Part shown: in pieces, positions 30,861 to 46,120 of the stretch
Layout: the number at the start of each line of letters is the position of its first letter
Position numbering within the stretch: position 1 is the first letter of the stretch
Assembly: GCA_016190145.1 (NCBI GenBank)
Contig: JACPRD010000173.1
Location: 1 to 64,000 of the forward strand
Direction of reading: 5' to 3'
DNA length: 64,000 nucleotides
From: Planctomycetota bacterium
GTDB taxonomy: Bacteria; Planctomycetota; MHYJ01; WSZJ01
The notes under the pieces: model-generated
What the model saw: only the letters and a program-made list of their open reading frames with translations
What the model was told of the DNA's origin: nothing
Databases searched by the model: none
Program-made: the position numbers and the translations under genes

Positions 30861-33800
30861 ATGCCCGATTTCCGCGAGCTGGTCCGCGAATACCACGCGA
30901 TCGTCTATCGCGTCGCGCTCGGCGTGCTCCGCGACGAAGCGGCTGCCGAGGATGTCGCGCAGGACGTGTTCCTCGCGTTCCTGCAGGACCCGGCCGCCCT
31001 GGCGCGCGCTTCCAGCCTCAAATCCTTCGTCTGTCGCACCGCCCTGAACCGCGCGCTCGACGCGCTGAAGGCGGGAAGGCGGAGAGCTGCCCGGGAAGCG
31101 CAAGTCGCGGAGAGGAGCGGGGTCATGGATCCATCGGAGGCGGCGTTCCGGCGCGAATTGCGCGAGAGGGTCGCCGAACTGCCGGAGGACCAGCGCGCGG
31201 CGGTGGATCTGCACTATTTCCAGGGGTTGACGCTTCCTGAGTGCGCGGCGGCGCTGGCGGTTCCCGAAGGAACGGTGTCAAGCCGGGTTTCCGCGGCGCT
31301 GTCGAAGCTGCGCGCCGTCCTTGCGGGCGCGGCGACGGCGGGTCTGCTGCTGGCACTCGAGGGGAATCTCCGCGCGTGCGAACCCGCCGCGGTGCCGGAG
31401 GGGCTGGAGGGGCGCCTGCAGCGGCTCGGTCGCGGCGCGCCAGGCGTTCCGACGGCGTCCGGTCGCGGAGCGCGGCTCATTCTGGCGGGTACGACGGTCC
31501 TGACGATCGTCCTCGTGGCGATCATCGGGTCGGTCACGTACCGGGCAATGCGCGGCGGGCCCGCACGGACGTCTTCGGTCGTTTCGCAGGGCGCCACGGC
31601 CCACGCCGGCGTGCCCGAAACGGCCGCCACCGCGACCGCCCCGGATGATGCCGGCATCGATTTCGCCTCCGTCGATCGCGACCTCGACCTTCATGGCATC
31701 GTCGTTTCGGAAGCGCAGGCGCCGATTGCGGGCGCGGAGCTCCGGACGCTCACCGAGCCCTGGCGGCGCGCCACGTTGCGGAAGGCAAGGGGGGAAGAGG
31801 AACGCGTCGGTGGTCCGGCCGCGCGTTCGGCGCGCGACGGAACGTTCCGCATCCGGTTGCGCCGCGGAGAGGAGGTCGCGCTGCGGGCGAGCGCCGCAGG
31901 ATTCGCGGCGATCGAGGTCAAGCGTTGCCTCGCGGGCGGCCGGGTCCGCATCGTGATGAAGCCGGGGGTGACGGTCGAGGTGCGCGCGAGGGATCCCGAG
32001 GGGCAGCCGCTTGCCAGGGCGCAGATCCGGATCGGAGGCGACGCCGGCGAGGAAAACGTCGCGTTCGCGGCGAAGGGCGACACGGACGAGGCGGGTCTGT
32101 GTCTCCTCGCTGGATTGCCCTCGGGGTGCGTTGCGGAACTCAGCGGCGTGCACCTCGCAACGGGAGGCGCCGGCAAGGCGACCCTCCGCCTTCCCGCGAG
32201 GGGAAACGTCGTCGCGGACTTGACGCTGCCCCGGCTCGGGACCGTGCGCGGCCGGGTTTTCGACGGAGTCACTCATCGGTCGATTCCGGGAGCCTCCATC
32301 CGCGCTCATTTCAACCCGGCGTTTTCCGCCCTCGCGGACGCAGACGGCCGCTTCGAGATCCGGGGCGTAGAAACCGGGTGGCTGTGGGTCGACGTGGCCG
32401 CGGAGGGATACGCGCCCGAGGCGGTCACGCCGGAATCAACGGACGACGTCGAAGTCATGCTCTTCCCCGCGTTCGCCGTAGCCGGTCGCGCCGTGGACGA
32501 TTCGGGGAGTCCCGTGAGAGACGCCCGGTTCGCCGCGTTCGGCGGCGTCAACAGCGGCGGCGGCTGCGAAATCGTGGCCCGCGACCGCGCCGGAGACGAC
32601 GGCCGCTTCCGGATCGGCGGCCTGGATGCGCGGGCGTCGTACACATTGAGCTGCGAGGCGCCCGGCCGTGGCCGGATCCTTCTCGATTTCGATTTCAGGG
32701 AACCGACCGCCGGGATTCGCGACCTCGGGGACATCGTCCTGCCCGCGTCGCGGTCGATCGAGGGCGTCGTCCTGACCGCGGAGGGCGCGCCGCTCGACGG
32801 CGTGACGGTCACCATCGAAGGCGGAAACATCGACCGCGCCCGGCTGCGAAACGGCGTCGAGAACTGGGACTGGCCGATTCGAAGGGCCGATTCGAGACGA
32901 ACCGACGACCTGGGGAGATTCCGATTTCCCGACCTCTCTCCGGGTCTGTACAACCTGATCGCGAATAAGGGCCGGTCGCGCGCCGGGGCGGAAATGCTGG
33001 TGGAGCTGAAGCCGGAGTCGAATCGCTCGGGGCTGGAGATCCGGATGCCGGCCGGGCGAGACGTCTCGGTGGTGGTCGTCGACGAGGCCGGCCAGCCGGT
33101 TGAGGGAGTCATGGTCCTTGTCGACCTCGAGGGAAAACTGGGCCTTGGCGGCGACACCGACGTCTCCGGGGTCGCGCGATTCACGCTCGGCGGCCCTGCG
33201 AGAGTGACGATCCTGGTCTCCAGAACCATCGGCACCGGCCCCTGGGTGGAGCCCGAGCCCAGGACTCTCGACGGCGACGCCGCGGAGATCCGTTTCGTGC
33301 TTGAAACCGGAAAAACGATCACGGGACGCGTCCTCGCGCCCGGTGGAAAACCGCTTCCGAAAGCGGGGCTCAGGGCGCTGATCGGCGAGAAGGTGGTCGC
33401 GGCGGGCAACGCCCGGGACGATGGCTCGTTCCGGCTCGTCGTCCGTTCGGCTGCGGTCGTCGATGTCGAACTCACGGGAGACTACTGGCTGAAGGACGGA
33501 GGTGCCTTCGAGGGGCGAGTCACCGGAGTGCGAGCCGGCGCCGACGACATCGTGGTCCACGCCGTTCCCATGGAAGCGAACCGCTCGCTTCGCGTCAGGA
33601 TCGAGTTCGCGGACGGCCGACCCGCCGCCGGCGCCTGGATCATCCTGAACTCCCGGGGAGACGCGCAAAAGGCGACCGCCGACGAGAATGGATCCGCCGT
33701 CTTCGACGGACTCGTCCCGAAAGGGGCGGAGATTCAGGCGGGCGTGCAGGACCCGGGCGACGGCGTCGCGTGGCAGGACGCGATCGAAGATCACATCATT

Positions 33801-34103
33801 CCATCGGGCCAGGAAGTCGTCATCCGGCTGGAGGTAGGCGTTCGAGTCGCGGGCGTCGTCCTCGGGCCTTCGGGCGAGCCGATTGCCGGCGCCCACATCG
33901 TGATCAGGGCGGCCGGGTTCTGGGAGAAGGAGCTGGACTCCGGGTCGAAGGGGCGGTTTACCGCCATTCTCGAAGCGGGCGCGCGGGGCGGATTCACGCT
34001 TCAGGCCACGCATCCCGGCGAGGCCGGAACGCTGCTGACCGGAGTCGCGGAAGGAGTCGTCGGCGGGGGCGACGTGACGGTGCGTCTGGAACCTGCGAAG
34101 TAG
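30861..34103 (+). CDS. ECF sigma factor fused through a TM helix to carboxypeptidase-regulatory-like repeats
   Basis: FRELVREYHAIVYRVALGVLRDEAAAEDVAQDVFLAFL; LPEDQRAAVDLHYFQGLTLPECAAALAVPEGTVSSRVSAALSKL; TM LILAGTTVLTIVLVAIIGSVTY; repeated GxVxxxxGxPxxxAxV units. Confidence 0.85.
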   Translation: MPDFRELVREYHAIVYRVALGVLRDEAAAEDVAQDVFLAFLQDPAALARASSLKSFVCRTALNRALDALKAGRRRAAREAQVAERSGVMDPSEAAFRRELRERVAELPEDQRAAVDLHYFQGLTLPECAAALAVPEGTVSSRVSAALSKLRAVLAGAATAGLLLALEGNLRACEPAAVPEGLEGRLQRLGRGAPGVPTASGRGARLILAGTTVLTIVLVAIIGSVTYRAMRGGPARTSSVVSQGATAHAGVPETAATATAPDDAGIDFASVDRDLDLHGIVVSEAQAPIAGAELRTLTEPWRRATLRKARGEEERVGGPAARSARDGTFRIRLRRGEEVALRASAAGFAAIEVKRCLAGGRVRIVMKPGVTVEVRARDPEGQPLARAQIRIGGDAGEENVAFAAKGDTDEAGLCLLAGLPSGCVAELSGVHLATGGAGKATLRLPARGNVVADLTLPRLGTVRGRVFDGVTHRSIPGASIRAHFNPAFSALADADGRFEIRGVETGWLWVDVAAEGYAPEAVTPESTDDVEVMLFPAFAVAGRAVDDSGSPVRDARFAAFGGVNSGGGCEIVARDRAGDDGRFRIGGLDARASYTLSCEAPGRGRILLDFDFREPTAGIRDLGDIVLPASRSIEGVVLTAEGAPLDGVTVTIEGGNIDRARLRNGVENWDWPIRRADSRRTDDLGRFRFPDLSPGLYNLIANKGRSRAGAEMLVELKPESNRSGLEIRMPAGRDVSVVVVDEAGQPVEGVMVLVDLEGKLGLGGDTDVSGVARFTLGGPARVTILVSRTIGTGPWVEPEPRTLDGDAAEIRFVLETGKTITGRVLAPGGKPLPKAGLRALIGEKVVAAGNARDDGSFRLVVRSAAVVDVELTGDYWLKDGGAFEGRVTGVRAGADDIVVHAVPMEANRSLRVRIEFADGRPAAGAWIILNSRGDAQKATADENGSAVFDGLVPKGAEIQAGVQDPGDGVAWQDAIEDHIIPSGQEVVIRLEVGVRVAGVVLGPSGEPIAGAHIVIRAAGFWEKELDSGSKGRFTAILEAGARGGFTLQATHPGEAGTLLTGVAEGVVGGGDVTVRLEPAK

Positions 34104-34209
34104 TGACCCCTTTTTCCACGCCGCGCACGCCGGCAGCCCCCACGCCTGAAAGCGAAGCCCCGCGAACCTTCCCGCGCGCCGCCCGATCAAGTATCGTCTC
34201 CCCCCGCAC

Positions 34210-36291
34210 ATGATCCAGGCCCCCCTCGGCTTCGAAGACCACCTCCCCGATCGCATGCCCGTCTGGCGGCGCATCGAGGAGGCCGCGCGCCGCATCTCCG
34301 AAACGTACGGCTACCGCGAGATGCGCACGCCCATCATGGAATCCACGGAGCTGTTCGTGCGCTCGGTCGGCGAAGTCACCGACATCGTCGAGAAGGAAAT
34401 GTTCACGTTCGACAAAGGCGACAAGGACTCCCTCACCCTCCGCCCCGAACTCACCGCCTCCTTCGTCCGCGCCTGCGTCGAACACGGCCTCTTCAAGAAG
34501 AAAGCCTTCCAGAAACTTTTCTACGTCGGCCCCAACTTCCGCAAGGAACGCCCCCAGAAAGGCCGCCTCCGCCAGTTCCACCAGTTCGGCGTGGAAGCCC
34601 TCGGCGCGACCGACGCCCTCCTCGACGCCGAAACCATCCTCCTCGCCCTCGAGTTCTTCACCGCCCTCGGCGTCCCCGGCGTCCGCACCCGCGTGAACTC
34701 CATCGGCTGCCCTACCTGCCGCCCGAAATACCGCGACGCCCTCAAGGCCCACTTCGAACCCAAACTCTCGAGCTTCTGCGAAAACTGCCGCCGCCGCTTC
34801 GACCGCAACGTCTTCCGCGTCCTCGACTGCAAAAACGAGGGCTGCATCTCCCTCTCCTCCGACGCCCCGCGCATCCAGGACCACCTCTGCGACCCCTGCA
34901 AGGCCCACGACGCCCAGCTCATGGCCGCCCTCGCCGCGGCCGGCGTCGCCTTCGCCCCCGACCCCCGCCTCGTCCGCGGCTTCGATTACTACACCCGCAC
35001 CGTCTACGAGTTCACCGCCCCCGGCCTCGGCGCCCAGGACGCCATCGGCGGCGGCGGCCGCTACGACAACCTCATCGCCGAAATGGGCGGCGACCCCGCC
35101 GGCGCCGTCGGCTTCGCCATCGGCCTCGAACGCGTCGTCATCGCCCTCGAAGCCGCCGGCAAGGCCCCCGAAGAAGAGTGGTACCCGACCCGGGTGTTCG
35201 TGACGCACATCGGCCCCACGACGCGGCTGCCGGCGTTCGACCTCGTGCGGACTCTTCGCGCCGCCGGAATCTCGGCCGATATGGACTTCGAGGGCCGATC
35301 GCTGAAGGCGCAGATGCGAAGCGCGAATCAGGTGCGATCTCTGTGGGCAGTAATTCTAGGTCCGGACGAGTTGGCGTCCGGTGAATGCAAGCTCGTCGAT
35401 CTATCGAGCCAGAGCGAACAGAAGGTCCAGCTTGCGGGCCTGGAGCAGCGCCTTATGGGATCGCCGACCAGTGCGCCAGAGGAGACGGTTGAAGGAGCCC
35501 AGTCGCGCGGGAAGCGGACCGTCTCTTCCTCCGAAACACTCGACATGACTGTTCCCGAACAGGTGGGAGATGAATTCCGCCGCTGGATTTCGTTTCCCGA
35601 CCCGGAGAACCCGGTCTTCCTGCTTCAAGCCTGGCCGGAAGAGGCGGACGATTCCGCCTTGGAAATCCCGGGCGTCTTCGACGTCGGCGGCCTCCAGGAG
35701 CGCGTCCGAAGGTTTGGGCCCACACGACCGAATGGTTTCAGCATGCTCTTCGAGGCCAGCACTCCGCAGCCGGTCGAAGGTGGCGGATTCAGCATCGCTT
35801 TCGCAGCCCGCAGGATGCTCTGCATTCGCCCTTCCGGAGTGAGCACGTTCGCTGCGTCGGGCGGACCTGCATGGCTTTCATGGGCGAGCTCCCGCTTTTC
35901 AAAGGAGCCTGTTCTGAATCCGTGGGTCCTGTTCGACTCCATCATCGACTTTTGTCGCCTTGAAATCGAAACGGTCTTCCGGTCCCTGCCTCCCAGGCCG
36001 TCGGGCTGGACCTTTGGGTTTGGGGTTTTCATTTCGCAGGCTCAGTCGAAGTTCCCCCTGCGAATGGCACGCGGCGCGTTCACGGAATTCCTCGTTCCGG
36101 ACACCAAACAGGCGCCCGGACGCCGGGTGCTCGCAGAAGTACGCCACAGGAGCGGAACGGACCTCGCGAAGGCCGTCGCATTCGACTTAATCCGGAAGGT
36201 GTACGACGGCTTTGGACTCGGAAGGCAGGACATGCCCTTCCTCAATCCGCAACGTGACGCCATCGACCTCACCTCATTTCTCCGCTCCTGA
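34210..36291 (+). CDS. hisS: Histidyl-tRNA synthetase with ~280-aa unrecognised C-terminal extension
   Basis: LRPELTASFVRACVEHG; FDYYTRTVYEFTAPGLGAQDAIGGGGRYDNL; ABD to DMDFEGRSLKAQMRSAN...ILGPDELASGE; frame stays open to 36291. Confidence 0.9.
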   Translation: MIQAPLGFEDHLPDRMPVWRRIEEAARRISETYGYREMRTPIMESTELFVRSVGEVTDIVEKEMFTFDKGDKDSLTLRPELTASFVRACVEHGLFKKKAFQKLFYVGPNFRKERPQKGRLRQFHQFGVEALGATDALLDAETILLALEFFTALGVPGVRTRVNSIGCPTCRPKYRDALKAHFEPKLSSFCENCRRRFDRNVFRVLDCKNEGCISLSSDAPRIQDHLCDPCKAHDAQLMAALAAAGVAFAPDPRLVRGFDYYTRTVYEFTAPGLGAQDAIGGGGRYDNLIAEMGGDPAGAVGFAIGLERVVIALEAAGKAPEEEWYPTRVFVTHIGPTTRLPAFDLVRTLRAAGISADMDFEGRSLKAQMRSANQVRSLWAVILGPDELASGECKLVDLSSQSEQKVQLAGLEQRLMGSPTSAPEETVEGAQSRGKRTVSSSETLDMTVPEQVGDEFRRWISFPDPENPVFLLQAWPEEADDSALEIPGVFDVGGLQERVRRFGPTRPNGFSMLFEASTPQPVEGGGFSIAFAARRMLCIRPSGVSTFAASGGPAWLSWASSRFSKEPVLNPWVLFDSIIDFCRLEIETVFRSLPPRPSGWTFGFGVFISQAQSKFPLRMARGAFTEFLVPDTKQAPGRRVLAEVRHRSGTDLAKAVAFDLIRKVYDGFGLGRQDMPFLNPQRDAIDLTSFLRS

Positions 36292-36307
36292 GAAACACGC
36301 ATCCGCC

Positions 36308-36618
36308 ATGGGACGCGTCAACGCTCGATACACCGCGGAGCAGTTCAATCAGTTGAGAAAGCTCCGGTCCCAAGGCGTCACAATTCGCGAGGCCATCGTC
36401 CGGGTCGGTGTCAAGTTGGGTACCGCGATGAGTTGGATGTACCGGGGAAATCGGCCGTTCTGCATTGCGAATCGAAACAACCAGTTCCGTATCCCCACGT
36501 CCGCAAGGCGGATGACCTGTGACAAGGCCTATGTTCTGGGAGTTCTCTGCGGAGACGGCTACCTCGGGGGAAGGTCACGGAATCAGATCCAGGTCGCAGC
36601 AGTCGACGAAGAATTTGT
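36308..36618 (+). pseudogene. 5' half of LAGLIDADG homing endonuclease gene, interrupted by IS66-type element
   Basis: N-term HTH-like YTAEQFNQLRKLRSQGVTIREAIVRVGVKLGTAMSWMYRG; LAGLIDADG motif 1 YVLGVLCGDGYLGG; frame continues at 38137. Confidence 0.85.
36611..36618. repeat. 8-bp target-site duplication GAATTTGT, left copy
   Basis: Identical to 38129-38136, flanking the IS ends. Confidence 0.95.
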
Positions 36619-38128
36619 GTAATTGTTTAGCGCCTTGCGCCGCATGAGCGACCAGCGCCACGGCTTTCGCAGCCCTCTACGTCGGCGACGTCATTGCCGG
36701 GATCTCCGGCACGGCGTCAGGCGGCGCCCGGAGGGCCCGGCTCAGGTAGTCTACCGCGTCGACCGCGCGTTTCACGCAGGTCTGAAGGATCGTGAGGAGG
36801 CGGCCTTGGGCTTCGGCGCCGTTCTGGGTTCTGCTTCCGCCCCAGACCTTGCGGTTGACGACGGCGGGGCGCATCGCCTGTTCGCCGAGGCGGTTGGTGG
36901 GCTCGATGGCCGGCTGCTTGAGAAACGTGAAGATCTCGTCGCCATGTTTTTCGAGGTGCTTGGCGAAGCGTTCGTTGTCCGGGTTGGTCTTGATGGGCCC
37001 GACCAACCTGTCCAGCCGGGCCTGAAGACGGCCGGTCGCGACGGCCAAGCCGTGGGGAGAGACCTTGCCCTCGTCGCGCCGATCCCGAAGGTCGATGGAG
37101 TCGAGCAGCAGCGTCTTGATGGAGCGCGGAAAGAGGACGGCGGCGCCGCGCGCCGTCTCCAGAAGTTCGCGGCAGCGGACGAGGAAATGAAACAGGCACT
37201 GCTGGTGCCGCGCTTTCTTGAAGCTGTCGTAAGGGCCCCATCCGTCGTGGCCCAGCAGGCCGTCGTAGTCGGGCCCGAGGACCTCGGCGGGGACGTCGAA
37301 CCCCCTGCTCGGACGGATGACGTACGCGATCGCCGTTCGGGTGACAAAGCCCCAGAGCCACTGGAGGATGCCACCGACCTTCCATCCCGTCTCGTCGACG
37401 TTGTTCTCCCGGCTCTTCCGGACATCAACCAGCACCCGCCGGTATGGTTTCTCGACCCGATCGGCCGCCCGGAGCATCACCTGCGCCGACCCGCCGCGAG
37501 ACAGCGGGATGCCGCAGATCTCGCTGAAGAAACGCGCCACCTTGCCGTGAGACAGCCCCAGATCCTTGTTCAGGTGAACCGCCACCGCCTGCGCGTCGGG
37601 TCCCAGCTGGCTCGCCGCTGCTCCCACCGCATCCGACGTCTGCAGCGGATGCCGTCCCTGAACTCGACGGCCGCACTTCCGGCACCGCCCCACCCCGATG
37701 TTGAACTTCCGCCGGATCGGCTTCCGCGGCATCTCCGTCTGGTACTGCTCGCAGACACCCTCCGCGTCCAGCGGCCCTCCGCAGTCGGGGCAGCAGCCCG
37801 GCAGCGGCGCGTCGTACGTCTCGTCCACCTCCGGCGGCACCTCACGGTGCGCTTTCACTCCGTAGTCCGCGCCGGCTTTGCGCCCTGGTGTCTTCGGCTT
37901 CGCCTTCGGGGGACCCTTTGAAAACGGCGCCGCCTGCCTCTTGTTCCCGCGCCGCGACTCCTCCAGCAACTCGCGGAGCTTCTTCAACTCCGCATCATGC
38001 TCGGCGAGACGACGCTCGAGACCGGCGCAGTTCGGGCACGGCTGTGACGGCGGTTGGAGACCCCTCTCCATTGATTTCTATATCGACCGCCGCCCATTCC
38101 CCTCTGGAGAAAGGCGCTAAACAATTAC
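36619..38128. mobile_element. IS66-family insertion sequence, single-ORF (ISBst12-like) type, 1510 bp
   Basis: Ends GTAATTGTTTAGCGCC / GGCGCTAAACAATTAC (perfect 16-bp IR beginning GTAA), 8-bp TSD, tnpC-like ORF. Confidence 0.95.
36677..38071 (-). CDS. IS66-family transposase (TnpC-like)
   Basis: Coiled-coil N-term; Zn-finger CCPDCGG...CRKCG; VDETGW, LLGHDGWGPYD, EPTNRLGEQAMRP. Confidence 0.95.
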   Translation of the reverse strand: MERGLQPPSQPCPNCAGLERRLAEHDAELKKLRELLEESRRGNKRQAAPFSKGPPKAKPKTPGRKAGADYGVKAHREVPPEVDETYDAPLPGCCPDCGGPLDAEGVCEQYQTEMPRKPIRRKFNIGVGRCRKCGRRVQGRHPLQTSDAVGAAASQLGPDAQAVAVHLNKDLGLSHGKVARFFSEICGIPLSRGGSAQVMLRAADRVEKPYRRVLVDVRKSRENNVDETGWKVGGILQWLWGFVTRTAIAYVIRPSRGFDVPAEVLGPDYDGLLGHDGWGPYDSFKKARHQQCLFHFLVRCRELLETARGAAVLFPRSIKTLLLDSIDLRDRRDEGKVSPHGLAVATGRLQARLDRLVGPIKTNPDNERFAKHLEKHGDEIFTFLKQPAIEPTNRLGEQAMRPAVVNRKVWGGSRTQNGAEAQGRLLTILQTCVKRAVDAVDYLSRALRAPPDAVPEIPAMTSPT

Positions 38129-38136
38129 GAATTTGT
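38129..38136. repeat. 8-bp target-site duplication GAATTTGT, right copy
   Basis: Identical to 36611-36618. Confidence 0.95.
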
Positions 38137-38626
38137 GCAGGCGTTTCAAGAGGCGATTTTCCGGCTGTACGGCAAGAAGGCAATTCTGGGGTACAGAGCG
38201 AAAACCAAGGCCTTCACGTTTCAGATAAAGAGCCGAGAGATTTACGACGACTTGCTGCGGTGCTTCGAGGGGGCATTGCCCAGAACCTTCTCGTGGCGGG
38301 TGCCAGGATGCGTCAGCGCGGCGAGGGATTCTGTACGCTGCGCCTTCTTGAGAGGATTCGTGGATTCCGAGGGGTGCCTGGTCGCCGGGCGCGGCACGAT
38401 CAACATATCTTCTTCGAACTTGCCTGGGATCGAGGACATCCAGGAATTGCTTGAAGACCTCGGGTTCGCGACGAAGCTCTACTCGACGTTGAATCGCCAA
38501 CGAGGAACTACTTCCTACCACGTCCAAGTACGCAGGCGCAGCCTTCGGCGATTCTTGCGCATGATTGGGCTGACCATTCGCAGGAAGGCCGAAGCAGCGG
38601 AGGCTTGCCTGACTCCTCGCAAGTAG
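38137..38626 (+). pseudogene. 3' half of LAGLIDADG homing endonuclease gene
   Basis: VQAFQEAIFRLYGKKAILGY...; LAGLIDADG motif 2 AFLRGFVDSEGCLV; joins 36308..36618 in frame (801 nt total). Confidence 0.85.
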
Positions 38627-38845
38627 GCGCTCGGCGCTCTCAAGCCACCCGCCAGGCAAGTTACTTTCACCACGCCTGCATCATCGCCCCCGCCGTAAGC
38701 GTCCGGTCTCTCTTTCGATTACCTGTACCTGGCGGCGGAAACAGGTGAATCACGACCGGAAATCCCCTGACAACTCCGGGGCTTGGGCCACGCCTCCCTG
38801 TGCAGCGCCCATCCGGGCCGTTTCCGTCGTGTTATGATTCTGCCA

Positions 38846-39201
38846 TGATTCAGGCGCTTCCCCCTCCGAGAGACGCCCGCGGGCAGGCGATCGCTCTCGA
38901 GCCGATCTCGGGGCTGCTGGATCTCATCTCGCGCGCCTGGCGCCCCACGGCCGTGTGGCTGTTCGGCAGCCGCGCGAAGGGCCTGGCCAAACCGGAGAGC
39001 GACTGGGACCTCCTCGTTGTGGTCCCCGACGACGAACCGGCAGTCGACGATCTCATGGCCGTGCACCAGGTGTGCAAGCCGTCCGGGGTGCCGGCGGACG
39101 TCATCCTCTGCAGGGCGACGGACTTCGAAGAGGCTCGGGAGGTACCGAACACGCTTGCGTACGAAGCGGCGCACTTTGGGTTACGGATCCATGGGCGCTG
39201 A
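38846..39201 (+). CDS. Minimal nucleotidyltransferase (MNT-type)
   Basis: VWLFGSRAKGLAKPESDWDLLVVV. Confidence 0.85.
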
Positions 39202-39261
39202 AAAGGTCATCGCCCATCTGGCGGGCTGCCTGCCCTGTTAAGATGCCCTCGGAGCGCACGG

Positions 39262-39495
39262 ATGACCTCGCGAGATTTCGGAATGCCCGATGACCCCCGC
39301 CGCACGGCCGCGGACGAGGTGAAACCGTACCTGCGGCTGACGCCGGCGGAGCGGTACGCGCGCTTCCTGGACCTCATGGCGTTCCTCGAGGGAATCTGGA
39401 CGTCGCTGCCGGCGGCCCGGCGGGAGCGGTACTCGAAGGCGAACGACCGCCTCGACGATCCGGGGCGCTGGTGGGACCGGGTTCCCGCGCGATGA
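39262..39495 (+). CDS. Small protein translationally coupled to a nucleotidyltransferase
   Basis: LTPAERYARFLDLMAFLEGIWTSLPAARRERY; stop overlaps next start as ATGA. Confidence 0.65.
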   Translation: MTSRDFGMPDDPRRTAADEVKPYLRLTPAERYARFLDLMAFLEGIWTSLPAARRERYSKANDRLDDPGRWWDRVPAR

Positions 39496-40082
39496 GCCTC
39501 CCGGCGCAACTGGGCGACGCCGTGCGGCAAACGGTGTCGGTCTTCGACGGCCTCGGCCTGCCGTATGCCATCGGCGGCGCGGTGGCCATGGCCTTCGGCG
39601 GCTATCCCCGAGGCACCCGGGACGTCGACGTGCTGGTTCTCCTGCCGGCGCTGCGATCGCAGGAGTTGGCGGACGCCTTCAATGCTGCCGGTTTCCGCAT
39701 GCACGACGAGTCGGACCGATCCATGCCCGTCGACGTCGCGCAGATGTCCCGGTGGTCGCGTGAGATCGGCCATTTCCGTGTGTGGTGGAAGGACGTCAAG
39801 GTCGAGGTCTTCACGCCCCGCGTTCCGCTTCAGGACGCCGTTCTGAAGCGTCGAATCCAGATCCAGCTGGAAGGCGGGCTGCTGTGGATCACGTCAGTCG
39901 AAGATCTCATTCTGCTCAAGATGATCTTCCATCGACCGAAGGACATCGAAGACGTGCGCCGGCTCCTTGCGGCCAACCAGGGATCGCTCGACCTCGCCTA
40001 CATTGAATCCTGGATCCCAAAGACCCTTCCGGACTCCGTCGGCGCCGAGCTTCGCGACATGATGCGGCCGACGGGAGATTAG
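39492..40082 (+). CDS. AbiEii/NTP_transf-like nucleotidyltransferase
   Basis: LGLPYAIGGAVAMAFGGYPRGTRDVDVLVLL...SVEDLILLKMIFHRPKDIEDVRRLL. Confidence 0.8.
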   Translation: MSLPAQLGDAVRQTVSVFDGLGLPYAIGGAVAMAFGGYPRGTRDVDVLVLLPALRSQELADAFNAAGFRMHDESDRSMPVDVAQMSRWSREIGHFRVWWKDVKVEVFTPRVPLQDAVLKRRIQIQLEGGLLWITSVEDLILLKMIFHRPKDIEDVRRLLAANQGSLDLAYIESWIPKTLPDSVGAELRDMMRPTGD

Positions 40083-40125
40083 GGGCGGAATGTCGAGATC
40101 GTCGATAACCACGGAAGGACTGCCC

Positions 40126-40456
40126 ATGAAGTCCACCGCAACCGTCCTCCTTCAAGCCCTCATTCGTGCTCCTGAGCATCGGCGCGCTCGTCTTCCTGCT
40201 CTGGGAGCCCCACGTCGAGGGACGGAATGCGCGCGCCACGCTGTTCCAGATCTACTTCAACGATCCGCTCCTGGCGTACGACTACATCGGGTCGATCCCT
40301 TTCTTCATGGCGCTCTACCAGGCCTTCCAGGCGCTGGCTGCCGTCAGGCGGAACGGGACAAGTTCGCCGGCGACGGTGAATCGTCTGCGGACGATCAGGC
40401 ACTGCGCGCTGCGGCATGCGGTCGCCACTTCCGGGAAGGACGTGTCGGCGCCTTGA
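40126..40456 (+). pseudogene. Frameshifted DUF2975-like membrane protein remnant
   Basis: Frame 1 MKSTATVLLQAL then shifted frame MLLSIGALVFLLWEPHVEGRNARATLFQIYFNDPLLAYDYIGSIPFFMALYQAFQAL, truncated. Confidence 0.6.
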
Positions 40457-40566
40457 GAAGCAGTGCTCCATGTTCTGCCAGGGCCGCGCCATGCCGAATC
40501 CGGGACGGTGGACCGATCCGCGGCGAGGTGTTGCGGTCGGGCCCTCCCGAAGAGGATAATCCGTTC

Positions 40567-40785
40567 ATGAAGCTCACGGTTGTCATCCGCAAGGACCCCG
40601 AGGAAAAGAGCGTCTACAACGCCTCTGTTCCGGCGTTTCCGGGATGCCACACCTGGGGCCGGTCTCGTGCCGAGGCGTTGAAACGCGCGAAAGAGGCGAT
40701 GCTGGTCTATATCGAGTCGCTCGAGGCCCGCGGCGAGCCTATCCCGAAGGACGTGGACTGCACGCAGGTCGAGGTCGCCGGTTGA
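40567..40785 (+). CDS. HicB-family antitoxin
   Basis: MKLTVVIRKDPEEKSVYNASVPAFPGCHTWGRSRAEALKRAKEAMLVYIESL. Confidence 0.8.
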   Translation: MKLTVVIRKDPEEKSVYNASVPAFPGCHTWGRSRAEALKRAKEAMLVYIESLEARGEPIPKDVDCTQVEVAG

Positions 40786-41003
40786 GGCCGGTCGCCTCCC
40801 GCCCTCGAGAGGTCGAACGCATTGCTCTTCGGCTCGGCTTCGTCTTTGATCGAGGCAGGGGCTCGCATCGGGTCTACGTTCGGCCGGATGGACGGAGAGT
40901 CGTGATCCCGTTCCACGGCGGAAGAACGATCCCGGCCGGAACGCTGCGGAGCATCATCGAAGACTTGGGAATCTCGGTCGAGCAGTTCAACCGCAGCGTC
41001 TAA
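40782..41003 (+). CDS. HicA-family mRNA interferase toxin
   Basis: TTG start overlapping the hicB stop (TTGA); SRPREVERIALRLGFVFDRGRGSHRVYVRPDGRRVVIPFHGGRTIPAGTLRSIIEDLGIS. Confidence 0.85.
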   Translation: MRPVASRPREVERIALRLGFVFDRGRGSHRVYVRPDGRRVVIPFHGGRTIPAGTLRSIIEDLGISVEQFNRSV

Positions 41004-41154
41004 GCCGGGTCGAGGAAGTCCGTTCGGACTGGCGGAGGCCTTCGCCGGCCCGTCCTACCCTGAGCGAGCCCGTGGGGCGAGTCGAAGGGTGCCATGGTCG
41101 GTGTCAACACAGGTCGGAAGGAGATTACTCAAGTCCGCTCAGGAACCCTGCTCA

Positions 41155-41577
41155 TCACGCGCTTTTCGTGCGCTTGAAGAGAACCGTCGACGGCCGCCGG
41201 GCTCGCCGGTAGCCGATTCTGAGGAAGGCTTCTTCGTGGTCCGCGAAGGGGTTCACGTACACGGGCACGCCGTTGGCGTAGGTTTCGACAGCCTGCAGGA
41301 GCTGCCGGCCGATGCCCTGGCGCTGCCGGTCGGGATGGACGGCGATTTCGCCGACGAACGTCGAGAAGGCGCCGTCGCAGAAGGCGCTGACGTAGCCGAC
41401 GAGCCGGCCGGCGGCGTCGCGAGCGTGGGCGACGAAGGGGTAGGCGGCGAGGGAGCGCTCGATTGCGGGGATCGAGTAGTCCTCGGCCTTTCCGGCCCCG
41501 ACGGCGGCCATGAGGGTCGCGAATTCGGCGGGAGTGACTGACTTGTCGAGGACGATCCGGATGGCGGGGGCGGGCAT
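41155..41577 (-). CDS. GNAT-family N-acetyltransferase
   Basis: VGYVSAFCDGAFSTFVGEIAVHPDRQRQGIGRQLLQAVETYA. Confidence 0.85.
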   Translation of the reverse strand: MPAPAIRIVLDKSVTPAEFATLMAAVGAGKAEDYSIPAIERSLAAYPFVAHARDAAGRLVGYVSAFCDGAFSTFVGEIAVHPDRQRQGIGRQLLQAVETYANGVPVYVNPFADHEEAFLRIGYRRARRPSTVLFKRTKSA

Positions 41578-41730
41578 GGCGGGTCTCCTGGGAAACGTCG
41601 AGGTCGAGCGTGGGCGCGGTGACATTCGGCGTGGCCCAGTGTCTCACACTCCCGGCGACGACAGAATCGCAACGGCACAGAGCGTCCTCACTTCGAACGC
41701 GACACACGACGGCGCGGATGCCAGAATCGG

Positions 41731-43179
41731 ATGGTGATCACGGCCGAGAACGCGTACTTCTTCCGCCACGCCGTCCTCCGCGACGCCGCGTATCAGCTCC
41801 AGATGCCGGGCGAGCGCTCGCAGCTGCACCGGCTTGCGCTCGAGGCGATTGAAGCGCTCTGCGGCGGGCGCCCGCCGGAGTTGCCCCTGGCCGCGGAGCC
41901 GGGCGGCTGCGAGGCCGTCGCACACGCATCGGACCCCTTCGCCGAGGAGCTCGCCGAGCACGGTCGTCGAGCAGAGGCGCCGGGCGCGGAGGCAGGACCC
42001 GTTCGCGCCGCGCGCCGGATCTACCTGAAGCGGGCTGCGGAGCTCGCGGAGCGCTCCTTCCGGCTGGAGCCGGCCTTCCGGGCGTGGGGCGAGGTTGCGG
42101 AGATCCTCGATGAAACGGAGAAGGCACACGCGCTCGGGAAGGCGGGGGTGCAGGCGCACTTCGCCGCGAAACCTCAGGTGGCCCTTCAATTCTGGGAATG
42201 AGCCCTCGAGATCTATCGGCGGCTCGGCGACCGGCGCAGCGCGGCCATCATGGTGGGAAACCTGGCGAATCTCAAAGGCGACCTGGGCCGGATCGCCGAG
42301 GCGGAGCCGCTGTTCCGCGAAGCGCTGGCGCTTCATCGCGACGTCGGCGACGAGCGGTCGGAGGTGCTCACTTCCGTGAAACTGGCCGGCCTGTACCACG
42401 ACACCGGCCGACTCGACCTCGCGGAGCGGGCGTTCCAGGCCGCGCTGGAGCACCGGGGTCGGCCGGGCCTCCGCGACTTCCTGGGCCTCGCCCTGGGAAG
42501 TCTCGGAAGCCTCTTCAAGGAAACGGGTCGGATCGAGCCCGCCGAGAAGGCGTACGCGGAGGCGCTGGCGATTCACCGCGAGTCCGGCGACCGGCGGTCT
42601 GAAGGGATCGTGCTGGGGAACCTGGCCAACCTGCACGGCGACACCGGCCGCGTCGAGGTCGCGGAGCGCGAGTACCTGGAAGCGCTCGCGATTCACCGGC
42701 AGACCGGCAATCGCCGGTCGGAGGGAATCGTGCAGGCCAATCTCGCCGGGCTGTACGGCGCCACCGGCCGCGCGTCGGAGGCCGAGCGCGGCTTCAGGCG
42801 CGCGCTCGACATCGACCGCGAGATCGGCAACCGGTGGGCTGAAGGGGTTGCGCTCGGCGGGCTCGCGGGGCTGCTTCGCCTCCAGGGCCGCGCGGCTCCC
42901 GCGATTCGCGCCTTCGACGAAGCGCTCGCCATCCACCGCGAGCTGGGGAACCGCCGTTTCGAAGCGGCCCATTCCTGCGATCGCGCGCTCGCGCTGTTGG
43001 CGGCCGGCGATCCCTCGGCGGCGGACGCCTGGCGCACGGGAGCGGCGATCCTGCGTTCGCTGGGCGACACGGTCGAGGCCGAACAGAAATCGGTCGAGAT
43101 GTGCGCGGCGTGCGGGAAGGCGGGGATCGCGCCGTTCGATGGGAGACCGGGATGTTCGACCGGAGGTACACTCGCGTGA
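41731..43179 (+). pseudogene. Truncated STAND/AAA-type ATPase tail plus TPR array with in-frame TGA at 42199-42201
   Basis: ENAYFFRHAVLRDAAYQLQMPGERSQLHRLAL...QFWE*ALEIYRRLGDRRSAAIMVGNLANLKGDLGRIAEAEPLFREALALHRDVGD; same frame on both sides of the stop. Confidence 0.7.
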
Positions 43180-43739
43180 TGCGACCCCTTCGGTTTTCGA
43201 TCAACGTCACTCTGGACGGGTGCTGCGATCATCGCGGCATCGTCCCGGACGAAGAACTGCATCATCACCATGCCGGGAACCTCGCCCGGGCCGATGCCCT
43301 GCTCATTGGCCGGGTGACGTACGAAATGATGGAGGCGGCGTGGCGGGCGCCGGCGCGGACGGGGGCCAGGCCTGACTGGATGCAGCCGTGGATGGAGCCC
43401 TTCGCCCGGACGATCGACGCGGCGAAGAAGTACGTCGTGTCGAGCACGCTGGACCGGGTCGACTGGAACGCGGAGCTCGTGCGCGGCGACCTGGGGACGG
43501 CCGTTCGGCAGCTCAAGCAGGCCTCGGGACGGGGACTGTTCGTGGCCGGCATCAAGCTCGCGCGGGCGCTGACGGAGCTGGGATTGATCGACGAGTACGA
43601 GTTCGTGGTGCACCCCAGGCTGGCGGGCCACGGGCCGACGCTGTTCGCAGGGCTCTCGAAGCCTGTCGACCTGAAGCTCGTGAGCCGGCTGGAGTTCGGC
43701 TCGGGCGCGGTGGCGATGCGGTACGAACCGAGGAGGTAG
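43179..43739 (+). CDS. Dihydrofolate reductase family protein (RibD C-terminal-like)
   Basis: RFSINVTLDGCCDHRGI...ADALLIGRVTYEMM...KYVVSSTLDRVDWNAEL...FVAGIKLARALTELGLIDEYEFVVHP. Confidence 0.85.
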   Translation: MRPLRFSINVTLDGCCDHRGIVPDEELHHHHAGNLARADALLIGRVTYEMMEAAWRAPARTGARPDWMQPWMEPFARTIDAAKKYVVSSTLDRVDWNAELVRGDLGTAVRQLKQASGRGLFVAGIKLARALTELGLIDEYEFVVHPRLAGHGPTLFAGLSKPVDLKLVSRLEFGSGAVAMRYEPRR

Positions 43740-43800
43740 GGGTGGTCGGGCTCTTCGGCTGCAAAGTCGAAAGGGAGGTCGCCCTCACCGCCGGCGCCCC

Positions 43801-43863
43801 GCGCTCCACGCCGAGGACGTCGCCACCGACATGGACTACGAGGGTCGGTGGATCAAGGCCCAA
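43801..43863 (+). pseudogene. Relic of a histidyl-tRNA synthetase 3' end
   Basis: ALHAEDVATDMDYEGRWIKAQ resembles the HisRS signature LRAxGVxADMDYEGRSLKAQ; compare LRAAGISADMDFEGRSLKAQ in the hisS of this window. Confidence 0.55.
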
Positions 43864-43991
43864 ATTCCAGGCACCAACGGTGTGAAGGCGCCGCCAGAAG
43901 GCTCGCGTTGGGCAAGAGTTTACAGTCTCCAGGCGAAATGACCTGCCCAAGGTCTTGCAGCTCACACTGCCGACGCTAGACTCGACAGCGA

Positions 43992-44648
43992 ATGTCACCG
44001 CAACCCCAGTTCGGCTGGCTCACGCCCTCTGCCGGCTGGATCTTCCGCATCACCCACCTCCAGAATGTTCCCTTCATCCTCGATCACGGTCTCCACTGCG
44101 CGAGCTCAGAAGTTCAGGACCCGAACTTTCTTCCGATCGGCAACCCGGATCTGATCGGGAAGCGCTCGGCCAGACCAGTCCCGATCCCGCCGGGCGGCAC
44201 TCTGGCCGACTACGTCCCGTTCTACTTCACGCCGCTCTCGCCGATGCTCTACAACATCCTGACCGGACACGGCGTGGAGCAGGTGGATCGAGGCGACATC
44301 GTCGTTCTCGCCTCGAAGATCGGCTCGATTCGGACGTCGGGCGCCCAGGTCGTCTTCACGGATCGGCACGCCTACCTCCAGACCGCAACCTACTTCCCAG
44401 ACGAAGCGGGACTGCAGGGTCTCGCGTGGGATCGCTGGCAGAACCGCGATTTCAAACGTCGAACTGCGGACGACGTCGAGATGGAACGATACCAGGCGGA
44501 AGCGCTCGTTCACGCTCGCGTGCCGATCGACGCCGTCCTCGGCCTCGCCTGTTATGATGAGCGCGGCAAGGACACGCTCGCTGCCGAGATCGCATCGCGC
44601 GGACTTCCCCTCAAAGTCCAGATAAAGCCGGAGTGGCTTTTCGCATGA
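43992..44648 (+). CDS. darT: DarT-like DNA ADP-ribosyltransferase toxin (DUF4433)
   Basis: IFRITHLQNVPFILDHGLHCA...DYVPFYFTPLSPMLYNI...DIVVLASKIGSI...EALVHARVPIDAVLGLACYD; adjacent macrodomain gene. Confidence 0.9.
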   Translation: MSPQPQFGWLTPSAGWIFRITHLQNVPFILDHGLHCASSEVQDPNFLPIGNPDLIGKRSARPVPIPPGGTLADYVPFYFTPLSPMLYNILTGHGVEQVDRGDIVVLASKIGSIRTSGAQVVFTDRHAYLQTATYFPDEAGLQGLAWDRWQNRDFKRRTADDVEMERYQAEALVHARVPIDAVLGLACYDERGKDTLAAEIASRGLPLKVQIKPEWLFA

Positions 44649-45727
44649 TCCAGTACACCGCCGGAAACCTGCTCGACTCCCGCGCCGAGGCCGTCGTCAA
44701 CACCGTGAACGAAGTCGGGGTCATGGGCAAGGGCATCGCGCTTATGATCCACGACGCCTTCCCGGCCAACGCGAAGGCCTACCAGGCCGCGTGCCGCCGG
44801 GGCGACGTGCAGGTCGGGCGGATGCTGGTTTTCGAAAATGCCCCTGGAAGCGCGCCTCGATGGATCGTCAACTTTCCCACCAAGAAGCACTGGCGCCACT
44901 CGTCGAAGCTCGAATGGATCGAGGCGGGCCTTCAGGATCTCGTGCGCGTCGTTCGCGACCGCGGAATCCGCTCGATCGCACTTCCTCCTCTGGGCTGCGG
45001 AAACGGCGGTCTCGAGTGGAGCCAGGTGAAGTCCGCGATCGACGCGGCGCTGGAACCCCTCGACGACGTGAAGATCGAAGTCTTCCAGCCGACGGACGCT
45101 TACCTGAACGCCCCCAAACGGAACGGCGTCGAGTCTCTCACTCCCGCCCGCGCCCTGATCGTCGAGCTCGTCCGCCGCTACGCCGTCCTCGGCCTCGACT
45201 GCACCAACCTCGAGATCCACAAGCTCGCCTGGTTTCTGAGCCGCGCCATCGCCCTAGAGTCGCTGCCCGATCCGCTCAAGCTGAGCTTCGAGCCCAACAA
45301 GTACGGCCCCTACGCCGACGCCCTGAGGCACGTGCTCGACGCCCTGGACGGCAGCTATCTGCACTGCGAGAAGCGCCTCGCCGACGCGGGACCGCTCGAG
45401 CCCATCTGGTTCGAGCCTTCCCGGCGTTCGACCCTGGAGGAGTACCTGCAGGGAGACGCAACGAAGCCCCTCCTGCCGGCCCTGGACCGCACCGCCACCC
45501 TGGTCGACGGTTTCGAATCGCCCCTGGGACTCGAACTGCTGTCAACCGTGGACTGGCTCCTGCACGAGAAGGGCTGTGAGCCCACCGTCGACGCCGTTCG
45601 CTCCGCCCTGCGTCGTTGGCCCGGTGGCCAGAGCGCGGCCCGACGGAAGTCGGCTCTGTTCTCGGACCGCCTCCTGACCCTTGCCCTCGGCCGCCTGCAG
45701 GCGGCGATGCCGACGGCGGCGAGGTAG
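44645..45727 (+). CDS. darG: DarG-like macrodomain antitoxin
   Basis: IQYTAGNLLDSRAEAVVNTVNEVGVMGKGIALMIHDAFP...IALPPLGCGNGGLEW; ATGA overlap with darT. Confidence 0.9.
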   Translation: MIQYTAGNLLDSRAEAVVNTVNEVGVMGKGIALMIHDAFPANAKAYQAACRRGDVQVGRMLVFENAPGSAPRWIVNFPTKKHWRHSSKLEWIEAGLQDLVRVVRDRGIRSIALPPLGCGNGGLEWSQVKSAIDAALEPLDDVKIEVFQPTDAYLNAPKRNGVESLTPARALIVELVRRYAVLGLDCTNLEIHKLAWFLSRAIALESLPDPLKLSFEPNKYGPYADALRHVLDALDGSYLHCEKRLADAGPLEPIWFEPSRRSTLEEYLQGDATKPLLPALDRTATLVDGFESPLGLELLSTVDWLLHEKGCEPTVDAVRSALRRWPGGQSAARRKSALFSDRLLTLALGRLQAAMPTAAR

Positions 45728-45730
45728 GCG

Positions 45731-46120
45731 ATGTTCGACAACAACGTGCGCTTCAGCGCCGACGCCGGGGGAGCTACGGTGACCGAGCCTGTCTTCCTGT
45801 TCGAGGAGCGTCGAGCGTTCATCCGCACGCGCACGCACCTCGTCATCACCAATCGGCAGCCCGGGTTCTTTGAGTTCGCGGCAACCGGCGATGGTGTCGT
45901 CGCCCGGCTCGTCAGGGTGTGGGTCGGGCGCATCGAGGGCCGCGAAACGATCCCCAGCGCCTACCTCGGCAGCGTTGTCCTGTGCCCGTCGAGCACCTTG
46001 GGGCCGCAGGTCGCGCGCCTCCTCCGCCGGGCGTCCGCCTCGCTCGCCGGGCGCTCCGAATTCCCCCGGGCGACCCTGCACCGCCTCGTGCTCCTCCTGC
46101 GCCGCTTTGCTGCGGCGTAG
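45731..46120 (+). CDS. Hypothetical protein, third ORF of the darTG operon
   Basis: Starts 3 nt after the darG stop; MFDNNVRFSADAGGATVTEPVFLFEERRAFIRTRTHLVITNRQPG. Confidence 0.55.
   Translation: MFDNNVRFSADAGGATVTEPVFLFEERRAFIRTRTHLVITNRQPGFFEFAATGDGVVARLVRVWVGRIEGRETIPSAYLGSVVLCPSSTLGPQVARLLRRASASLAGRSEFPRATLHRLVLLLRRFAAA

What the first reader, a model, noticed from the sequence alone, without database searches (positions are those of the whole stretch)
35178..43863. Candidate genomic island inserted in the 3' end of hisS, with the displaced hisS end left ~8.5 kb away
Seen: hisS coding style changes near 35178 (C-ending codons before, mixed/G-ending after) and its frame runs on into a ~280-aa unrecognised tail. 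Then come a homing endonuclease, an IS, nucleotidyltransferase pairs, HicBA and broken genes. At 43801-43863 a short segment encodes ALHAEDVATDMDYEGRWIKAQ, matching the conserved HisRS anticodon-domain signature. Inference: an element replaced the hisS 3' end and displaced the original, as known for integration into tRNA/tmRNA gene ends, but here in an aminoacyl-tRNA synthetase CDS.
Basis: partly seen in the sequence, partly recalled or inferred. Interest (0 to 1): 0.85.

Follow-up and report, generated by a model that had tools for sequence, protein, structure and literature searches.

The report
hisS gene with swapped 3' end
In an uncultured bacterium the end of the essential histidyl-tRNA synthetase gene has been swapped for a foreign end that is followed directly by a DNA-cutting "homing" enzyme gene, and a decayed second copy of the gene lies 8.5 kb away, which resembles a selfish element so far described only in yeast.

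Summary
Partly confirmed. The hisS frame (34210-36291) encodes a complete HisRS (TIGR00442 positions 1-405 of 406), then an unrecognised ~280-aa tail not found in congeners. The real junction is 35325 (support 35322-35330), where identity to congener hisS falls from 90% to 49%; GC3 falls from 0.91 to 0.66. Foreign 3' end, tail and a LAGLIDADG endonuclease gene (later split by an IS66 element) share low GC3. At 43752-43893 lies a real hisS pseudogene: two collinear blocks, closer to congener hisS than to the intact gene, ending sharply about 18 bp from the point equivalent to the junction. One block comes from upstream of the junction and native sequence beyond nt ~1137 is missing, so it is a second-copy relic, not simply a displaced 3' end. 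Congener G002 has a hisS relic over the same site; 78 unrelated loci and 14 from the class and phylum have none. Best reading (0.4): a decayed, bacterial WHO-like homing locus (replaced 3' end, endonuclease, host-gene relic). Main rival: hisS duplication by homologous recombination with the endonuclease a passenger. Cleavage is untested.

The parts
34210..35325 (+). hisS, native (genus-type) part of the coding sequence
   Evidence: 79-84% DNA identity to congener hisS; full-length TIGR00442 match
35326..35451 (+). hisS, foreign 3' end (last ~42 codons of HisRS)
   Evidence: identity to G002 drops 0.90 to 0.49 at 35325; GC3 0.66-0.67 against 0.89-0.98 in congeners
35452..36291 (+). in-frame C-terminal tail of ~280 residues, function unknown, with stop codon
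   Evidence: open frame; no family match; no relatives found
36308..36618 (+). LAGLIDADG endonuclease gene, 5' half (first motif VLGVLCGDG), starting 16 nt after the hisS stop
   Evidence: translation; weak match to a phage endonuclease family
36619..38128 (-). IS66-family element inserted in the endonuclease gene; transposase 36677-38071 (-); terminal repeats 36620-36636 and 38111-38127; target duplication GAATTTGT 36611-36618 and 38129-38136
   Evidence: NF033517 E 9.9e-64; repeats
38137..38626 (+). LAGLIDADG endonuclease gene, 3' half (second motif FLRGFVDSEG)
   Evidence: PF14528 E 1.4e-15
38800..41003 (+). accessory genes: MntA-like nucleotidyltransferase (38800-39201), second nucleotidyltransferase (39471-40082), HicB (about 40567-40785) and HicA (domain about 40806-40973)
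   Evidence: Pfam and NCBIfam; probably passengers
43752..43808 (+). hisS relic, block 1 (hisS CDS nt about 614-672)
   Evidence: 88% to G003 hisS over 58 bp; score 74 against shuffle maximum 35
43803..43893 (+). hisS relic, block 2 (hisS CDS nt about 1046-1137), ending sharply at 43893
   Evidence: 82% to G002 hisS over 91 bp; score 102 against shuffle maximum 38; differences 6/5/5 over codon positions
43992..45727 (+). DarT-DarG pair directly after the relic
   Evidence: PF14487 E 1e-51; NF048014 E 4.9e-123

Best explanation
This is a decayed homing locus at hisS that works like the yeast WHO elements. Inferred mechanism: a free-standing LAGLIDADG endonuclease cuts hisS near CDS nt 1116-1137, in the anticodon-domain stretch that follows the conserved DMDFEGRSLKAQMR motif. 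Repair from a donor replaces everything 3' of the cut with the donor's own cleavage-resistant hisS 3' end plus the endonuclease gene, so the essential HisRS stays functional without any splicing. A native-like hisS copy remains to the right, decays, and is itself broken at about the same site. Shown: the full-length chimeric HisRS, the sharp junction, the shared low GC3 of foreign end, tail and endonuclease, the endonuclease gene 16 nt after the stop, the hisS pseudogene, and a second relic over the same site in a congener. Inferred: that this endonuclease cuts hisS, that the foreign end is resistant, and that homing caused the replacement. The IS66 insertion suggests that the endonuclease is now dead. 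The tail and the genes between endonuclease and relic are probably passengers.
For: Junction at 35325 seen against three congeners, with no break there between G002 and G004. HisRS remains full length. GC3 0.91 before, then 0.66, 0.71, 0.68, 0.72 in 3' end, tail and both endonuclease halves. Both LAGLIDADG motifs present. Relic closer to congener hisS than to the intact gene, pseudogene-like substitutions. Relic ends about 18 bp beyond the equivalent of the junction. G002 relic spans the same site. 0 of 78 and 0 of 14 other hisS loci have a relic. The same layout and a tested mechanism in yeast (PMC7282813).
Against: Relic block 1 lies upstream of the presumed cut, which the simple WHO model does not predict. 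The native end beyond nt ~1137 is missing. Five kb of other genes separate endonuclease and relic. No endonuclease was found in G002, although it has a relic. No relative of this endonuclease at another hisS locus. Detection of relics is biased to conserved stretches, which weakens the coincidence of break sites.
Confidence: 0.4

Rival explanations
1. Homologous recombination with incoming DNA that carried another hisS (single-crossover or tandem acquisition) gave two hisS copies flanking accessory genes. One copy became a chimera with the incoming 3' end; the redundant copy decayed. The endonuclease is a passenger.
For: The relic has a block from upstream of the junction. hisS copies come and go in this genus: G003 carries a truncated hisS 5' fragment on another contig, closest to G004. 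G002 has a relic but no endonuclease hit. The region 3' of hisS is variable in G002 and G003.
Against: After a single crossover the upstream block of the right copy should come from the same foreign donor as the 3' end of the left copy, but it is congener-like at 88%. Does not explain why the foreign 3' end, tail and endonuclease share composition or why breakpoints cluster near nt 1116-1137.
Confidence: 0.35
2. Site-specific integration of an island into the hisS coding end by an integrase now lost, with the foreign end as attL side and the relic as attR side (as e14 in icd; known from general knowledge).
For: Replaced coding end plus host-gene sequence at the far side; the two hisS copies overlap over the conserved motif.
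Against: No integrase recognised among the scanned proteins. The far side should continue into the native 3' end, but similarity stops at nt ~1137, and the relic contains upstream sequence. GC3 of most cargo resembles the host.
Confidence: 0.1
3. Unconnected events or an assembly chimera: a hisS scrap captured at an island border, and a separate 3' recombination or a misjoined contig.
For: The genome is a 217-contig assembly, 85% complete. Short gene scraps at island borders are common (general knowledge).
Against: The frame stays open through the junction and gives a full-length HisRS. The relic lies on the same contig and strand, and a comparable relic exists in G002. No relic in 92 control loci.
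Confidence: 0.15

Closest known systems
WHO homing elements at FBA1 in Torulaspora and Lachancea yeasts (PMC7282813)
   Same: Essential host gene with native 5' and foreign 3' part; free-standing LAGLIDADG gene directly downstream; host-gene fragments further downstream; endonuclease of intein ancestry; no splicing.
   Different: Bacterial; host gene hisS; no zinc-finger match; C-terminal tail on the host protein; relic lacks the gene end and includes an upstream block; 5 kb of other genes in between; endonuclease split by an IS; cleavage untested.
Inteins and intron-borne LAGLIDADG endonucleases
   Same: Same endonuclease superfamily (PF14528; best PDB sequence match 1dq3; phage matches are RNR inteins).
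   Different: No splicing domains found and no intron RNA match; hisS is not interrupted.
Islands and prophages that replace the end of a protein gene on integration (e14 in icd; from general knowledge)
   Same: Element supplies a substitute coding end and host-gene sequence is found on the far side.
   Different: No integrase recognised; no native gene end on the far side; relic includes upstream sequence.
Phage intronless homing by free-standing endonucleases (T4-type; from general knowledge)
   Same: Free-standing endonuclease next to a host gene that may be resistant.
   Different: Here a cellular gene, with replaced coding end and a pseudogene copy of the host gene.

Membership tests
WHO-type homing element | Full-length host gene with native 5' part and diverged, foreign 3' part | tested here: met
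   Change-point at 35325, identity 0.90 to 0.49; HisRS full length
WHO-type homing element | Free-standing LAGLIDADG endonuclease gene downstream of the host gene | tested here: met
   Gene starts 16 nt after the hisS stop, two motifs, no splicing domains found; later split by IS66
WHO-type homing element | Fragment of the host gene's former 3' end downstream of the endonuclease | tested here: inconclusive
   hisS relic present, but it holds nt ~614-672 and ~1046-1137 and lacks the end
WHO-type homing element | Endonuclease related to HO/WHO with zinc finger | tested here: not met
   No zinc-finger family above cut-off in the 5' half; only general LAGLIDADG_3 similarity. It is therefore not filed as a WHO member, only as working like one
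WHO-type homing element | Allele-specific cleavage of the host gene | not testable with these tools
   Needs a biochemical assay
Intein or self-splicing intron | Splicing domains or intron RNA interrupting the host gene | tested here: not met
   No Rfam match at E 0.1 in 34000-46000; no intein domain in the hisS product
Integrase-driven element in a coding end | Integrase gene in the element | tested here: not met
   None recognised among scanned proteins
Integrase-driven element in a coding end | Native gene end intact at the far border | tested here: not met
   Similarity stops at 43893, hisS nt ~1137
IS66 family | IS66 transposase, terminal inverted repeats, 8-bp target duplication | tested here: met
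   NF033517 above cut-off; perfect 17-bp repeats; GAATTTGT duplicated

The most novel reading that the evidence does not exclude
A natural bacterial cut-and-rescue element: an endonuclease that cleaves an essential aminoacyl-tRNA synthetase gene and spreads by supplying a resistant 3' end together with its own gene. It would extend the WHO class of homing elements to bacteria and to tRNA synthetases.
Probability: 0.3. Interest if true: 0.8.

Novelty: new variant of a known kind. Interest (0 to 1): 0.6.

Why it matters
If right, a class of homing element described only in two yeast genera (host gene with replaced end, no splicing) also exists in bacteria and uses an aminoacyl-tRNA synthetase gene as its anchor. 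That would be a natural precedent for cut-and-rescue selfish DNA in bacteria and a mechanism for the chimeric evolution of essential genes. Even on the rival reading it records a swap of the coding end of HisRS with a relic of another copy left behind.

Tried and rejected
Breakpoint at 35178: rejected, a congener shares the codon shift. Truncated HisRS: rejected. Intron or intein with the 43.8-kb segment as 3' exon: rejected; no Rfam match, no splicing domains, and the relic lacks the end of the gene. Foreign middle segment (34750-34951): not supported, since G002 and G004 differ about as much there. Structure prediction of the tail: mean pLDDT 35, not usable. Donor of the foreign 3' end: none among 392 genomes; best matches are the congeners at 54-57% over about 54 residues. 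Endonuclease homologues: none in genome contigs, viral contigs or plasmids; one weak match in the phylum, in a long frame; phages give weak matches, mostly RNR inteins. Other free-standing LAGLIDADG_3 genes in the phylum (L192, L193): no duplicated host gene beside them. Literature searches for hisS as integration site, HisRS with homing endonuclease, and bacterial WHO-like elements gave nothing relevant in the held library. Gene order around hisS in the genus is too poorly conserved to show an empty site.

Full report
What is there. The window is part of contig C155 (74 kb) of a 217-contig genome assembly; four congeners (G001-G004) and further class and phylum members are held. hisS starts at 34210. 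Its product matches TIGR00442 from position 1 to 405 of 406 at 34216-35430 and keeps the anticodon-binding domain, so HisRS is whole. The frame then runs on for about 280 residues to the stop at 36291. This tail matches no family, and no relative was found in the class, in 392 genomes of the phylum, in viral contigs, plasmids or phages. Its codon-position GC pattern is coding-like.

The junction. A change-point in C-ending codons at 35170 exists, but congener G003 shows the same shift at nearly the same codon without this island, so it is a property of the gene. What is peculiar to this genome is a loss of similarity at 35325 (support 35322-35330): identity to G002 drops from 0.90 to 0.49, log-likelihood ratio 45 against at most 6 in shuffles. 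G003 and G004 give 35328 and 35319, while G002 and G004 compared with each other show no break there. The last 50 residues of HisRS are 48-50% identical to congeners, which are 65-96% identical to each other there; the preceding 44 residues are 77-84% identical. GC3 falls from 0.91 to 0.66 and stays low through the tail (0.71) and the endonuclease (0.68, 0.72), against 0.78-0.87 in most genes beyond, HicBA excepted. rpoB shows that this genome is an ordinary member of the genus (82-85% to the others). The 3' end, tail and endonuclease therefore look like one foreign unit; that they arrived together is inference.

The endonuclease. The next gene starts 16 nt after the hisS stop and encodes a LAGLIDADG protein with both motifs (VLGVLCGDG and FLRGFVDSEG). 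It is split by an IS66-family element of about 1510 bp with perfect 17-bp terminal repeats and an 8-bp target duplication. In this phylum nearly all other LAGLIDADG_3 matches lie in long open frames, and most of those inspected look like inteins. Its weak relatives are intein endonucleases.

The relic. At 43803-43893 there is 82% identity with G002 hisS (CDS nt about 1046-1137), and at 43752-43808 there is 88% identity with G003 hisS (nt about 614-672), in order and on the same strand. Scores of 102 and 74 compare with maxima of 38 and 35 in 1000 shuffles. Block 2 is only 62% identical to this genome's own hisS, and its differences from G002 are spread evenly over codon positions (6/5/5), whereas functional congeners differ mainly at third positions. 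It is thus a pseudogene of a congener-type hisS. It ends abruptly after nt 1137, about 18 bp beyond the position equivalent to the junction in the intact gene, and DarTG follows. Two facts do not fit a simple displaced 3' end: block 1 comes from upstream of the junction, and the native end beyond nt 1137 is absent.

Recurrence and controls. Congener G002 has its own hisS relic (nt about 1076-1164, 81% to its own gene) 0.65 kb downstream of an intact hisS. The stretch 3' of hisS differs completely between G002 and G003, which otherwise keep collinear traces; it holds an nSTAND3/Mrr-type protein in G003 and a SEC-C protein in G002. By contrast 78 hisS loci from other bacteria (678 kb of downstream DNA) and 14 from the class and phylum have no such relic. 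G001 cannot be judged because its contig ends inside hisS. G003 also has a truncated hisS 5' fragment on another contig, closest to G004, so hisS copies have come and gone in this genus.

Interpretation. The arrangement of chimeric host gene, endonuclease and downstream host-gene relic is that of the yeast WHO elements, which home into FBA1, replace its 3' end at each integration and push older fragments downstream (PMC7282813, read). I take a decayed WHO-like homing locus as the best single explanation (0.4). The swap, its sharp border, the compositional unity with the endonuclease, and the relic are shown; cleavage, resistance and homing are inferred. The main rival (0.35) is a hisS duplication by homologous recombination followed by decay of one copy. 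It accounts better for the upstream block, but not for the congener-like character of that block beside a foreign 3' end, nor for the clustering of breakpoints. A lost-integrase element (0.1) fails two tests. The remainder (0.15) is unconnected events or an assembly chimera. The WHO comparison is about how it works; membership in that family is not claimed, since the zinc finger is not found and cleavage is untested.

Noticed in passing
L050 11587-11824 (- strand), genome G003 contig C108: Truncated hisS 5' fragment (about 62 codons plus upstream sequence), 84% identical to G004 hisS but only 76% to G003's own hisS: evidence that hisS copies have been replaced or moved within this genus.
   Followed up: partly
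L035 (G002 contig C12) and L036 4060-6477 (G003): The stretch just 3' of hisS holds unrelated accessory genes in two congeners (SEC-C protein with a possible NERD domain; nSTAND3/Mrr-type protein matching candidate defence family PDC-S73): a possible insertion hotspot.
   Followed up: partly
window 43992-45727: Complete-looking DarT-DarG DNA ADP-ribosylation toxin-antitoxin pair directly after the hisS relic.
   Followed up: no
window 41046-41090: A 45-bp intergenic sequence occurs twice, 89 bp apart, in congener G004 (91% identity), suggesting a small dispersed repeat.
   Followed up: no
window 30861-34103: Long protein with an N-terminal ECF-type sigma factor (regions 2 and 4) fused to several carboxypeptidase-regulatory-like domains, directly upstream of hisS.
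   Followed up: no
L192 1640-2803 (reverse-complemented coordinates) and L193 5057-6175: Two related free-standing LAGLIDADG proteins with a cysteine-rich N-terminal segment and a helix-turn-helix-like stretch in distant members of the phylum; no duplicated host gene beside them.
   Followed up: partly
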